A stretch of 64,000 nt of DNA, taken from the NCBI GenBank assembly GCA_028282805.1, contig JANQHD010000023.1, positions 124,001-188,000 of the forward strand. Direction: 5' to 3'. A program made the position numbers and the translations under genes. Shown piece by piece: positions 11,500-15,480 of this stretch. Below the pieces are notes generated by a model. The model worked only from the letters and a program-made list of their open reading frames with translations. It was not told the origin of the DNA and did not search any database. Each line of letters opens with the position of its first letter. Positions within the stretch are counted from its first letter, which is position 1. This stretch comes from Phycisphaeraceae bacterium. GTDB lineage: Bacteria; Planctomycetota; Phycisphaerae; Phycisphaerales; Zrk34.

Positions 11500-12564
11500 T
11501 CATTTCAAGTTGAATTCTCGCTCGAAGAACCCGTAGTTCGCCGCCTTCTTGGCTTCCCACAACGTCTGCTCGGCCACCTCGTTGGCCCGGGCGGTGCCTT
11601 CCTTGATCACGTCCAGCGCATCGGCGTCGGTAATCGCCGCCCGCCGCTCGCGGACCGGGTCGAGCAAGCGGTTGATCGCCTCGCCCACTTCTTTTTTGAG
11701 GTGGCCGTCGAACAGCTCGCTCGCGGCGTACTGCCCTTTGAGCTCCGCGACGCGGTCCGGGTCCTCGTGGAAGATCTCCAGGTACTCCAAAACCGTGTTG
11801 CCCTCGAGCACCGGCGGGTCGTCGGTCGAACCGCGGCCGGTGAAGATCTTGTTGCACTTCTTCTGGACCGCCTTGGGCGTGTCGGACAGGAGGATCGCGT
11901 TGCCCAGCGATTTGCTCATCTTGTTCTGCCCGTCGGTGCCGGCCAGCCGACCGACGCGCCCGACCTTCGCCTCGGGCACGGGGAACACGCCCCCGGCCTT
12001 CACGTGGTCGGCATCGTCAACGGTGCCCTTCACGCCGCAGTAGGTCTGGTTGAACCGCCGGGCGATCTCACGCGTCATCTCGATGTGCGGCACCTGGTCC
12101 ACGCCCACCGGCACACACGCCGGCTTGAACGCCAGGATGTCCGCGATCTGCCCCACGGCGTACATCAAAAACCCGAAGCTGTACTGGTCGGTCAAACCCT
12201 TGACGCGGATCTCGTCCTTGATCGTCGGGTTCTTCATCAAACGCCCGTACCCCAACAGCATCGCGAAGTACCACGTCAGCTCCGCGATCGCCGGCACCTC
12301 CGACTGGAGGAAGAACGTCGACTTGCGGGGGTCGAGCCCGATGCTGATCCAGTCCTTGACGATCTCGATCGTGTCGGCGTGGATTTCGTCGGTCCGGTCC
12401 GCCCGCGTGGTCAGCGCATGGACGTTGGCGATGATGAAGTAGCAGTCGTACTCGTCCTGCATCTTCACGCGGTTTTCCAGCGACCCGACGTAATGGCCCA
12501 GGTGCAGGGCGCCGGTCGGCGTGTCGCCGGTGAGGATGCGGGGTTTGTCGGTCGTTTGGCTCAT
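11500..12564 (-). CDS. trpS: Tryptophan--tRNA ligase
   Basis: A class Ic aminoacyl-tRNA synthetase of 354 aa that charges tRNA-Trp with tryptophan. The HIGH-type motif is HLGH at 21-24 within PTGALHLGHYVGS and the KMSKS motif is exact at 215-219. Conserved GVDQVPHIEMTREIARRFN lies between them. Length fits bacterial TrpS (about 330-360 aa). It is divergent from the beta-helix gene with a 100-bp gap holding both promoters. Confidence 0.97.
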   Translation of the reverse strand: MSQTTDKPRILTGDTPTGALHLGHYVGSLENRVKMQDEYDCYFIIANVHALTTRADRTDEIHADTIEIVKDWISIGLDPRKSTFFLQSEVPAIAELTWYFAMLLGYGRLMKNPTIKDEIRVKGLTDQYSFGFLMYAVGQIADILAFKPACVPVGVDQVPHIEMTREIARRFNQTYCGVKGTVDDADHVKAGGVFPVPEAKVGRVGRLAGTDGQNKMSKSLGNAILLSDTPKAVQKKCNKIFTGRGSTDDPPVLEGNTVLEYLEIFHEDPDRVAELKGQYAASELFDGHLKKEVGEAINRLLDPVRERRAAITDADALDVIKEGTARANEVAEQTLWEAKKAANYGFFEREFNLK

Positions 12565-12664
12565 GGTGAGGGATGTTTTAGCCGCTCACCGCCCGGGCGT
12601 CGAGCGCATGCGGAGGCGGGGATCGTCCTGTTGGAGAAACACAGCGTGCGGAGGTGCACGGGCC

Positions 12665-14170
12665 ATGATGAGTGTTTGGCGAGCGATCTTGTGTGTGTCG
12701 ATGTGTCTGTCCGCGGCCGAGCACTCCGCGCTGTGGGATGGGCACGGCTCACATCTGAAACCCGGCGGGCGGCTGCCGGACTTCTCGTTCGCGGGCTATC
12801 GGCGCGGTGAAGCGGCGATCCCTAAACCGACCGTGGTGGCCGACGTGACCGACTTCGGCGCAAAGGCCGACGACGAGATCGACGACACCGCCGCGTTTCA
12901 AAAGGCGCTCGCCGAAGCGCCCCGCGGCGCGATCCGCATCCCGTCGGGCCGGTTCATCATCTCCGATTTTCTCACCATCAACCGGCCGGGCGTCGTGCTC
13001 CGTGGCGCCGGTTCCCAAAAAACCACGCTCTACTGCCCCAAGCCCCTGCACGAGATCAAGCCCGACATGGGCGCGACGACGACCGGTCGGCCGACCAGCA
13101 ACTACTCGTGGTCCGGCGGGATCGTGCGCTTCGTCGGGAGCTACCGCCTCAAGCAAATCGCCGCGGTCACCCAACACGCCAAGCGCGGCGACACGCGCAT
13201 CACCGTCAACAACGCCGCGCCGTTCAAGGTCGGCCAGGACGTGATGATCCGCCTGCTCGGCGACGGCACGCACGCGGTGGTCAAGCACCTGTACGCCGGC
13301 GACCCCGGCGATATCGCGAAGCTCAGCAAGCGCACCGGCGCTTCGATCGTGTGCAAGGTCGTTGCGATCGAGGGCGACGTGTTGCACGTCGACCGCCGGT
13401 TGCGCTTTGACTGTCGGCCAGTGTGGAAAGCGGTGGTGCACCGCTTCGAACCCACGGTGACCGACAGCGGCATCGAGGGCGTGGCGTTCGAGTACCCGCT
13501 GACGCCTTACGAGGGGCACTTCACCGAAAAAGGCTTCAACGCGATCGCGTTCGGGCGTGTGGCGCACTGCTGGGCGCGCGACCTGCGCATCGTCCACCCC
13601 GATTCGGGCCTCTTCGTCGGCGGCGTGTTCTGCACGATCGACGGCGTGGTGTTCGAATCGAAGCGCCAACCCACCCGCGACGCGGTGGGGCACCACGGCG
13701 TCTACTTCTACGGCGACGATAACCTCTACCGGGGCTTCGACTACCGCTGTAAGTTCATCCACGACATCTCCCTCGCGCACTGCGCGGGCAACGTGATCAC
13801 CAAGGGGCGGGGCGTGGACCTCTGCCTCGACCACCACAAGAAGGCGCCGCACGCGAACCTGTTTACCGACATCGACCTCGGCGTCGGTTCCCGGCCGTGG
13901 AAATCGGGCGGCGGCCGGCAGCTCGGCAAGCACGCCGGCGCGTGGAACACCTACTGGAACCTGCGTTCGCAGCGGCCGATCAGCTACCCGCCGCAGCGGT
14001 TCGCGTGCCGGATGATCAACGTCGTCGGCGTGCACACGGAACAGCCGAGCGTCACTGAGCCGGACGGCAAGTGGTTCGAGGCGATCCCGCCGCAGCGGCT
14101 GCGCCCGGCCAACCTGTACGAGGCGCAGCTCAACCGGCGGCTACAATTATTGAAGCAACTCAATCGTTGA
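12665..14170 (+). CDS. Secreted right-handed beta-helix protein (pectate-lyase-3-like)
   Basis: A 501-aa protein starting with a signal peptide (SVWRAILCVSMCLSAAEHSA). The body opens with DVTDFGAKADDEIDDTAAFQ, the classic entry strand of pectate-lyase-superfamily/GH28-type parallel beta-helix enzymes, followed by IRIPSGRFIISDFLTI and GVVLRGAG. Such proteins act on polysaccharides outside the cell. The catalytic residues cannot be assigned, so lyase, hydrolase and epimerase activities are all open. Start is the first of two adjacent ATGs, with GGAGGTG about 10 nt upstream. It is the gene immediately before the retron region, but a functional link is not expected from its family. Confidence 0.75.
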   Translation: MMSVWRAILCVSMCLSAAEHSALWDGHGSHLKPGGRLPDFSFAGYRRGEAAIPKPTVVADVTDFGAKADDEIDDTAAFQKALAEAPRGAIRIPSGRFIISDFLTINRPGVVLRGAGSQKTTLYCPKPLHEIKPDMGATTTGRPTSNYSWSGGIVRFVGSYRLKQIAAVTQHAKRGDTRITVNNAAPFKVGQDVMIRLLGDGTHAVVKHLYAGDPGDIAKLSKRTGASIVCKVVAIEGDVLHVDRRLRFDCRPVWKAVVHRFEPTVTDSGIEGVAFEYPLTPYEGHFTEKGFNAIAFGRVAHCWARDLRIVHPDSGLFVGGVFCTIDGVVFESKRQPTRDAVGHHGVYFYGDDNLYRGFDYRCKFIHDISLAHCAGNVITKGRGVDLCLDHHKKAPHANLFTDIDLGVGSRPWKSGGGRQLGKHAGAWNTYWNLRSQRPISYPPQRFACRMINVVGVHTEQPSVTEPDGKWFEAIPPQRLRPANLYEAQLNRRLQLLKQLNR

Positions 14171-14197
14171 ACGCATCACACGGCATCGCGTTTTGTG

Positions 14198-14227
14198 TTG
14201 ACGCGGCGCACCGCTTGGGCCGACAAT
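14198..14227 (+). promoter_or_regulatory. Candidate sigma-70 promoter for the retron RNA
   Basis: TTGACG (14198-14203), an 18-nt spacer and GACAAT (14222-14227). Transcription would begin near 14234, almost exactly at the first base of the closing stem of RNA unit 1. The corresponding place before unit 2 has no such promoter. Confidence 0.5.
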
Positions 14228-14235
14228 GTACGCAC

Positions 14236-14347
14236 GCACCTTGGGGACGCTCCCTATGCCGAGCGTCGGGTTGGCGTTTCGCCGACCGGGTCCGAATGGG
14301 CCGGCTTGTCAGTCAGCGGTATCCACCCCGCGTGGTTAGCAAGGTGC
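14236..14347 (+). ncRNA. Candidate retron msr-msd RNA, unit 1
   Basis: A 112-nt segment closed by the inverted repeat GCACCTTG (14236-14243) and CAAGGTGC (14340-14347), matching the a1/a2 stems of retron RNAs. Inside are, in order: a hairpin GACGCTC/GAGCGTC (14246-14267); an 8-bp hairpin with a TTT loop, GGTTGGCG-TTT-CGCCGACC (14269-14287); a hairpin GGTCC-GAAT-GGGCC (14289-14302); a conserved CTTGTCA; and a hairpin CCAC/GTGG (14323-14335). The TTT-loop hairpin resembles the msr hairpin of retron Ec86. A second copy follows at 14402 with the same fold but changed stems. Confidence 0.7.
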
Positions 14348-14401
14348 CGGGCGTCGGTCGCGACATCGCGCGTCGCCCGTTGGCTTCGACAACACACGAT
14401 C

Positions 14402-14510
14402 GCACCTTGGGGCGCTCAAACGCAGAGCGCAGGCTGGCGTTTCGCCATCCGGGTCCGAAAGGGCTTGTCACACACCCAGCGGCCACGGGTCGCACCCGTG
14501 AGCAAGGTGC
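14402..14510 (+). ncRNA. Candidate retron msr-msd RNA, unit 2
   Basis: A 109-nt copy of unit 1 closed by the same stem, GCACCTTG (14402-14409) with CAAGGTGC (14503-14510). Its hairpins are GCGCTC/GAGCGC (14412-14430), the TTT-loop hairpin (14432-14450, core TGGCG/CGCCA), GTCC-GAAA-GGGC (14453-14464) and a perfect 7-bp CACGGGT/ACCCGTG hairpin (14484-14500). Several stems differ in sequence from unit 1 but still pair, which supports selection on structure. It ends 64 bp before the RT start. Confidence 0.7.
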
Positions 14511-14574
14511 CGGGCGTCGGGCGTGAGAGCGCGCGCCGCCCATTTGGGTTCGAACACTTTCAACGGGGCAAGCG

Positions 14575-15480
14575 GTGGGTTTCTTCGATTGGATTTTCGG
14601 CGACGAGCAAACGCGGCTCGAGAAACGGGAGCAGGCGTACCGGCGGCTGGCCGACTGGCTCGACGTGCCGGTCGATGAGCTGCTCGACACGCCGCGCGAA
14701 TACACAGCGTTCACCATCCCCAAGCGGCGCGGCGGCGTGCGGCGGATCGATGCGCCGAACCCCGAGCTCAAAGCCCTGCAGCGCCGCATCCTGCGCCGCG
14801 TGCTCGCGAAGCTGAAGGCGCACCCCGCGGCCCACGGGTTCGAGAAGGGCCGATCGATCGTGACTAACGCCCTGCCGCACGCGAGCAAGCCGGTCGTGGT
14901 CCGCATGGACGTGCGCAACTTTTTCGCCAGCACGACCCGCAAGCGTGTGTTGAAATACTTCCGGGCGATCGGGTGGAGCAAGAAGGAAGCGGTCTTGCTG
15001 GCCGACCTTTGCACGCACAACGGGTCGTTGCCGCAGGGCGCGCCGACGAGCCCGCGGCTGTCGAACCTGGTGAACTACCTGCTCGACGCGCGCCTCGCGG
15101 GATTGATCGATGAGATGGGCGGCGAATACACGCGGTACGCCGACGACGTGACGGTGTCGTTCATCGACGACGGACCGGGCATCACGCCGCGCACGATCTA
15201 TGTGGTCGGCGCGGTCTTCTACCGGTTCGGGTACGCCGTGCACGGCAAGCGGAAGCGGAGCGTGCGCCGGGCGCACCAGCGGCAGCAGGTGACGGGGCTG
15301 GTGGTCAACGAGCTGCCGGGCCTGCCGCGCGAGGTGCGGCGGACGCTGCGGGCCGTGGAACACCGCCTACGCACGGGGCGCGAAGCGACGATGACGCGGG
15401 CCCAACTCGACGGGTGGCGGAGCTTGCAGTGGATGATCGTCAATCAGGTGAAAGAGGGGTTGGATCGCTCGGGGGTTTGA
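14575..15480 (+). CDS. Retron reverse transcriptase
   Basis: A 301-aa RNA-directed DNA polymerase that would copy part of the adjacent RNA into msDNA from a 2'-OH primer. Retron-specific marks are both present: the NAxxH motif (NALPH, 98-102) and the VTG motif (239-241). RT motifs are FTIPKRRGGVRRIDAP (46-61), the motif A aspartate in RMDVRNFF (D112), QGAPTSPRLSN (154-164) and the catalytic YADD (188-191). No extra catalytic domain is fused. The GTG at 14575 is followed by MGFFDWIFGDEQ; the ribosome-binding site is weak. The preceding 340 bp carry two tandem msr-msd-like RNAs. No effector gene (nuclease, ATPase, membrane toxin) lies beside it: upstream is a beta-helix enzyme and downstream a convergent nitroreductase. 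Known retrons are anti-phage systems. Confidence 0.92.
   Translation: MGFFDWIFGDEQTRLEKREQAYRRLADWLDVPVDELLDTPREYTAFTIPKRRGGVRRIDAPNPELKALQRRILRRVLAKLKAHPAAHGFEKGRSIVTNALPHASKPVVVRMDVRNFFASTTRKRVLKYFRAIGWSKKEAVLLADLCTHNGSLPQGAPTSPRLSNLVNYLLDARLAGLIDEMGGEYTRYADDVTVSFIDDGPGITPRTIYVVGAVFYRFGYAVHGKRKRSVRRAHQRQQVTGLVVNELPGLPREVRRTLRAVEHRLRTGREATMTRAQLDGWRSLQWMIVNQVKEGLDRSGV

What the first reader, a model, noticed from the sequence alone, without database searches (positions are those of the whole stretch)
14205..14536. Compensatory changes between the two RNA units
Hairpin 1 is GACGCTC/GAGCGTC in unit 1 and GCGCTC/GAGCGC in unit 2; hairpin 3 has loop GAAT against GAAA; hairpin 4 is CCAC/GTGG against CACGGGT/ACCCGTG. 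Different sequences still pair, while the closing stem, the TTT-loop hairpin and CTTGTCA are kept. This is direct internal evidence that structure, not protein, is selected in this region.
Basis: seen in the sequence. Interest (0 to 1): 0.65.

Follow-up and report, generated by a model that had tools for sequence, protein, structure and literature searches.

The report
Retron with two tandem RNA templates
Just before a bacterial retron reverse transcriptase gene lie two diverged back-to-back copies of its structured RNA template, so a single enzyme may make two different small DNAs where nearly all relatives carry only one template.

Summary
The finding is real and can be identified. The region holds two tandem copies, about 165 bp apart, of a retron msr-msd RNA. 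They lie directly upstream of a retron reverse transcriptase (14575-15480, NAxxH and VTG motifs, 35% identical to the E. coli Ec86 enzyme). I found the same RNA upstream of about 60 related Planctomycetota RT genes. Across 25 copies, 19 of 24 pairs show double compensatory changes and 95% of cells are paired, so selection acts on RNA structure, not protein. It holds one clean compensatory pair (hairpin 1), one broken pair (hairpin 2), one-sided G-C/G-U changes, and a hairpin 4 that is not the same stem in the two units. What is unusual is the duplication. Of 65 genomes with this RNA, only two carry two copies: this one, and G506, where each unit has its own promoter-like sequence and the msd templates are unrelated. 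No effector gene is conserved beside the RT. Duplicated msr/msd without a nearby RT is on record (Retron-Nex1), so I file this as a new variant of a known kind. That both RNAs become msDNA is inferred, not shown.

The parts
14198..14227 (+). Sigma-70-type promoter-like site of unit 1 (TTGACG, 18 nt, GACAAT); the predicted start falls at a1
   Evidence: 1 found, 0.1 expected. TTGAC(A/G)-16/18-tANNNT sites recur 13-17 nt before the a1 anchor in most relatives.
14236..14243 (+). Unit 1 a1 (GCACCTTG), pairs with a2 14340-14347
   Evidence: this helix covaries across relatives.
14246..14267 (+). Unit 1 msr hairpin 1 (GACGCTC/GAGCGTC)
14269..14287 (+). Unit 1 msr hairpin 2 with the GTTTCG tip
   Evidence: the same hairpin type lies inside the Ec86 ncRNA.
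14289..14302 (+). Unit 1 hairpin 3 (GGTCC-GAAT-GGGCC)
14305..14339 (+). Unit 1 msd (template) region; weak hairpin 14323-14335 or alternative 14316-14331; lacks the GTCGCAC loop
   Evidence: limits of the template are inferred.
14340..14347 (+). Unit 1 a2 (CAAGGTGC)
14349..14378 (+). Unit 1 GC-rich hairpin 5 after a2 (position of terminator-like hairpins in relatives; no T run here)
14388..14393 (+). GACAAC, the counterpart of the unit 1 -10 box, without a -35 box (unit 2)
   Evidence: best promoter score 6 of 12.
14402..14409 (+). Unit 2 a1 (GCACCTTG), pairs with 14503-14510
14412..14430 (+). Unit 2 msr hairpin 1
14432..14450 (+). Unit 2 msr hairpin 2 with the GTTTCG tip (one C.U mismatch)
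14451..14466 (+). Unit 2 hairpin 3 (GGGTCC-GAAA-GGGCTT)
14464..14502 (+). Unit 2 msd region with hairpin 14484-14500 (CACGGGT-CGC-ACCCGTG) and the GTCGCAC loop shared with many relatives
   Evidence: TCGCA loop in 20 of 40 units.
14503..14510 (+). Unit 2 a2 (CAAGGTGC)
14512..14541 (+). Unit 2 GC-rich hairpin 5
14233..14349 (+). Match of covariance model R1 to unit 1 (75.2 bits; unit 1 helped build the model)
14399..14512 (+). Match of covariance model R1 to unit 2 (84.5 bits; unit 2 helped build the model)
14575..15480 (+). Retron reverse transcriptase, 301 aa, GTG start; NALPH (NAxxH), YADD, VTG

Best explanation
This is a compact, effector-less retron of Planctomycetota whose msr-msd RNA gene has been tandemly duplicated. 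Shown: two copies of the same RNA family, each with an a1/a2 closing stem, msr hairpins (one with the GTTTCG tip), a short msd segment and a GC-rich hairpin, directly before a retron RT; and selection on the structure across the family. Inferred: the RT recognises both RNAs through the shared closing stem and GTTTCG hairpin, primes on the G just after a1, and copies each msd into msDNA, giving two different small DNAs from one enzyme. Unit 1 has the promoter. Unit 2 probably depends on read-through. The cellular role is most likely phage defence, as for retrons in general, with an effector that is unlinked or not recognised.
For: RT: PADLOC RT_XIII 5e-78; PDB Ec86 RT 1e-37; 35% identity to the Ec86 RT; NAxxH and VTG, named as retron RT marks in PMC6868368. 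RNA: found upstream of RT genes 48-58% identical to this one and of more distant members; covariation 0.541 against 0.236, 0 of 500 shuffles; model R1 finds both units and nothing else in the genome at E <= 1. The GTTTCG hairpin of R1 aligns to the hairpin inside the Ec86 ncRNA. The promoter is placed so that transcription starts at a1. The duplication is seen independently in G506 with two promoter-like sites.
Against: The conserved AGC around the priming G is TTGG(C/T/G) here. The msd stems (7 and 4 bp) are shorter than the 10-50 bp usual in retrons. Unit 1's msd is weakly folded and lacks the common loop, so unit 1 could be decaying. Unit 2 has no recognisable -35 box and one mismatch in hairpin 2. 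No effector gene is conserved in the neighbourhood. No expression data exist.
Confidence: 0.88

Rival explanations
1. Only one of the two units is functional and the other is a decaying duplicate. Unit 2 (canonical msd, next to the RT) would be the live one if read-through supplies it; unit 1 if the promoter decides.
For: Unit 1 lost the GTCGCAC loop and has a 4 bp msd stem with a competing fold. Unit 2 has no -35 box and a broken pair in hairpin 2. Of 65 genomes with this RNA, 63 do with one copy.
Against: Unit 1 kept all 39 counted stem pairs, with two double changes relative to the family consensus. The closing stem is identical in both. Stem pairs survive better than random substitution would leave them (P about 0.011).
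Confidence: 0.4
2. The two units make two different msDNAs that serve as two separate sensors or decoys for one RT.
For: In G506 the two units share 85% of the msr but 47% of the msd, which is background (45% between loci), and each has its own promoter-like site; one unit has a terminator-like hairpin with a T run and the other a GC-rich hairpin. In the window the msr is 74-77% and the msd 55-58% identical.
Against: The msd is the fastest-changing part between all loci, so divergence alone does not prove separate roles. Only two cases are known. No effector or phenotype is known.
Confidence: 0.25
3. The region is protein coding (open frames 14071-14526 and 14195-14815) and the hairpins are a by-product of high G+C.
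For: Open frames of 151 and 206 aa exist.
Against: The units are spaced 166 and 163 bp, not a multiple of three. No such frame is conserved in relatives: the only ORF clusters around the RNA are the RT and its antisense frames. Pair covariation is far above shuffled and slid controls.
Confidence: 0.01
4. The repeat is a riboswitch, leader or other regulatory RNA unrelated to a retron.
For: Two structured repeats upstream of a gene; no Rfam family matches.
Against: It tracks retron RT genes across the phylum, has retron anatomy, and carries the GTTTCG hairpin found in the Ec86 ncRNA.
Confidence: 0.03

Closest known systems
Retron-Eco1 (Ec86) of E. coli, NCBIfam retron St85 RT family
   Same: RT 35% identical; ncRNA directly upstream of the RT; a1/a2 closing stem; msr hairpin with the same GTTTCG tip.
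   Different: Ec86 has one ncRNA and an effector gene beside it. Here there are two ncRNAs and no effector; the msd is much shorter; the RT scores below the NCBIfam St85 cut-off (205.7 against 235).
PADLOC retron RT_XIII / RT_other / RT_outgroup models
   Same: Best RT model matches (5e-78, 9e-73, 3e-70).
   Different: The match to the 469-position XIII profile is split in two stretches; none of the four neighbouring genes tested matches any PADLOC model.
Retron-Nex1 (Ne160) of Nannocystis exedens
   Different: Nex1 has no RT within a kilobase. Here two copies lie head to tail directly before the RT, with the msd more diverged than the msr.
Tandem msr-msd of genome G506 (L045/L145), found here
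   Same: Two units of the same RNA family upstream of an RT of the same clade.
   Different: Each G506 unit has its own promoter-like site; the msd segments are 46 and 72 nt and unrelated.

Membership tests
Retron | RT with retron-specific NAxxH and VTG motifs | tested here: met
   N98-A-L-P-H102 and V239-T-G in the alignment; motif definitions in PMC6868368.
Retron | RNA next to the RT with inverted-repeat ends a1/a2 | tested here: met
   GCACCTTG/CAAGGTGC in both units; the helix covaries in relatives.
Retron | msr with 1-3 stable hairpins, stems of 7-10 bp, loops of 3-10 nt | tested here: met
   Hairpins 1 and 2 in both units, plus a weaker hairpin 3.
Retron | Priming G within a conserved AGC after a1 | tested here: inconclusive
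   A G follows a1 in every copy, but the context is TTGG(C/T/G), not AGC.
Retron | msd folding into one long hairpin (about 10-50 bp stem) | tested here: not met
   7 bp in unit 2, 4 bp in unit 1. Long stems do occur in relatives of the same family, such as L008 and L005.
Retron | Production of branched msDNA | not testable with these tools
   Needs ssDNA gels or sequencing.
Tripartite defence retron | Effector gene beside the RT or fused to it | tested here: not met
   28 loci compared; only the RT is conserved. Four window neighbours have no PADLOC match.
NCBIfam retron St85 RT (NF038233) | Score above the curated cut-off | tested here: not met
   205.7 bits against 235.
PADLOC retron type XIII | RT_XIII as best RT model | tested here: met
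   5.3e-78, but RT_other is close at 8.8e-73 and the match is in two stretches.
PADLOC retron type XIII | Type-specific partner genes | tested here: inconclusive
   Four nearest genes scanned, no match; the partner list could not be read from the defining paper.
Rfam family | Match to any of 4227 models | tested here: not met
   No match at gathering score or at E <= 1.

The most novel reading that the evidence does not exclude
A dual-template retron: one reverse transcriptase makes two msDNAs of different sequence from tandem msr-msd genes, so that one defence complex carries two different sensors. The arrangement arose at least twice in this clade (window and G506).
Probability: 0.25. Interest if true: 0.68.

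Novelty: new variant of a known kind. Interest (0 to 1): 0.5.

Why it matters
Retrons are usually taken as one RT with one RNA. Two natural cases in which the RT-recognised part is kept while the template part diverges would allow a direct test of whether the msd sequence sets what is sensed, and give natural two-output msDNA designs. The RNA family itself, with its covariance model, seems to lack an Rfam entry and would let compact, effector-less retrons be found across Planctomycetota.

Tried and rejected
Rfam at gathering score and at E <= 1: nothing. Protein-coding reading: rejected. Search for a conserved partner gene in 28 loci with roughly 4-6 kb flanks: only the RT and its antisense frames are conserved; the other clusters are synteny between close genomes. 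Intrinsic terminators in the window itself: none found, although hairpin 5 sits where relatives have a hairpin with a T run. Orphan RNA copies elsewhere in the genome: none. My first a1/a2 search gave wrong partners for several long-msd loci, visible as spans of 170-270 nt; those were left out of the covariation set. Literature: the defining classification paper of retron types is not held; nothing found on tandem msr-msd next to an RT. No structure prediction was run, because the RT identity was already clear.

Full report
What was checked. The strings in the finding are all present. The region consists of two head-to-tail units, a1 to a1 166 bp apart and tail to tail 163 bp apart, and it is followed at 14575 by an open frame of 301 aa.

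What the downstream gene is. The 301 aa protein is a retron reverse transcriptase. It matches PADLOC retron RT models (RT_XIII 5e-78), Pfam RVT_1, the solved Ec86 retron RT (phmmer 1e-37) and NCBIfam retron_St85_RT below its cut-off (205.7 of 235 bits). It carries NALPH (the retron NAxxH), YADD and VTG. The review PMC6868368 names NAxxH and VTG as retron-specific. It is 35% identical to the RT beside the Ec86 ncRNA of E. coli strain C. The genome holds one such RT.

What the two units are. RT relatives (58% identity and lower) carry the same RNA anatomy upstream of the RT: a closing stem ending in YYTTG / CAARR, a hairpin 1, a hairpin GGNYGATGTTTCGTCRNCC, a GGGTC hairpin, a variable msd hairpin, RGCAAG, and a GC-rich hairpin that in several relatives has a T run. 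This is retron msr-msd anatomy. A covariance model (R1) built from 25 units finds the RNA at E < 0.001 in most of the 67 sources searched; the 25 seed sequences match by construction, the rest are independent. In the window's own genome it finds only the two units. The hairpin-2 part of R1 aligns to 2043-2060 of L157, inside the Ec86 ncRNA; the score is low (11 bits, E 0.086) but it falls on the right hairpin.

Is structure selected? On 25 sequences and 24 pairs, 95.1% of cells form a standard pair against 79.8% in shuffles; 19 pairs show a change on both sides; the covariation score is 0.541 against 0.236 +/- 0.014; 0 of 500 shuffles reach it; sliding the partners by 1-3 columns drops it to 0.15 or less. 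All four counted helices have 93-99% of cells paired. A caution is that the structure came from RNAalifold on the same alignment, which favours it on cells paired; the size of the gap makes this immaterial.

What the two units say by themselves. Of 39 hand-aligned pairs outside the msd, unit 1 forms 39 and unit 2 forms 37. Eight stem substitutions separate them: one double change (hairpin 1, A-U / G-C), three one-sided changes that stay paired, and two positions unpaired in unit 2. Random placement of eight substitutions on unit 1 would keep 33.4 pairs on average, P(37 or more) about 0.011. Against the family majority, unit 1 is the derived copy with two double changes (hairpin 1 G-C to A-U; hairpin 2 C-G to U-A), while unit 2 keeps the common state apart from one broken pair. 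Unit 2's msr is closest to that of a genome in the same family (78%, L003) and unit 1's is closest to unit 2 (74%); the tails of the two units are 81% identical against 66-67% with L003. This fits a lineage-specific duplication followed by faster change in unit 1, but with about 110 nt it is not a firm tree.

What differs between the units. Identity is 77% over a1 to hairpin 3, 55% over the msd and 83% over a2 plus hairpin 5. Unit 2 has the GTCGCAC msd tip seen in half of the family (TCGCA in 20 of 40 units); unit 1 does not. Unit 1 has a promoter-like site TTGACG-18-GACAAT, placed as in most relatives so that transcription would begin at a1. Unit 2 keeps only the -10 counterpart GACAAC. Short similar words (TTGG..CGACAAT, TTGGCTTCGACAAC, TTTGGGTTCGAACAC) lie before, between and after the units, as expected from a tandem duplication through short repeats; this last point is inference.

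How common the duplication is. Searches with R1 over 301 genomes of the order, 397 of the class and 392 of the phylum (overlapping draws) gave matches in 22, 30 and 26 genomes, 65 distinct in all. Only two have two copies: the window's genome and G506. Searches over 40 genomes use stricter filters that lose weak matches, so this is a lower bound. In G506 the two units are 218 bp apart upstream of the RT; each has its own TTGACG promoter-like site; they share 85% of the msr and only 47% of the msd, against a between-locus mean of 45%. G506 is in another family, so the two duplications are likely independent.

Mechanism. The RT should bind both RNAs, since the closing stem and the GTTTCG hairpin are shared; prime on the G after a1; and copy each msd. 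Shown: anatomy, conservation, adjacency. Inferred: binding, priming, two products. Phage defence is inferred from the retron family alone. No effector is conserved beside the RT in 28 loci, so the effector is unlinked, absent or part of the RT's own N-terminus; 18 of 52 listed RT rows (one row per RNA unit) have a predicted hydrophobic N-terminal segment, though not this one.

Comparison with the known. Retrons are known, and duplicated msr/msd repeats are on record for Retron-Nex1 without an RT within a kilobase (PMC6868368). I found no report of tandem msr-msd units directly before their RT, in a library that lacks most subscription papers and the classification paper. I therefore call it a new variant of a known kind.

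Noticed in passing
L145 (G506:C212:13339-13652, minus strand): A second, apparently independent tandem pair of msr-msd units upstream of a retron RT, each with its own promoter-like site; one has a terminator-like hairpin with a T run, the other a GC-rich hairpin; the msd segments are unrelated (46 and 72 nt).
   Followed up: partly
L030 2439-2552 (G394:C288:3037-3150, plus; RT 2099-2902, minus): The same RNA family (88.5 bits) in divergent orientation to its RT, with a TTGACG box before it: the RNA would be transcribed away from the RT gene.
   Followed up: partly
L004, L006, L009, L010, L019, L023, L045, L051 and others (N-terminus of the RT): 18 of 52 listed RT rows (one row per RNA unit) have a predicted N-terminal hydrophobic segment, probably membrane-spanning; many others, with the window's, begin MG(L/F)(F/G) and a short amphipathic stretch. 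Start codons were guessed.
   Followed up: partly
window 11500-12564 and 12521-14170: A class I tRNA synthetase (W/Y type) gene lies upstream here and in the same-family genome G001 (L138). In the window a 549 aa frame with a pectate-lyase-like segment stands between it and the retron.
   Followed up: partly
L005, L008, L002 (relatives): Msd length varies from about 30 to about 100 nt within one RT clade, with very long perfect hairpins in some members and very short ones here.
   Followed up: no
L012 and L013: Two loci filed as Deltaproteobacteria and candidate division WS1 carry the same RT and RNA family, hinting at transfer or mis-binned contigs.
   Followed up: no
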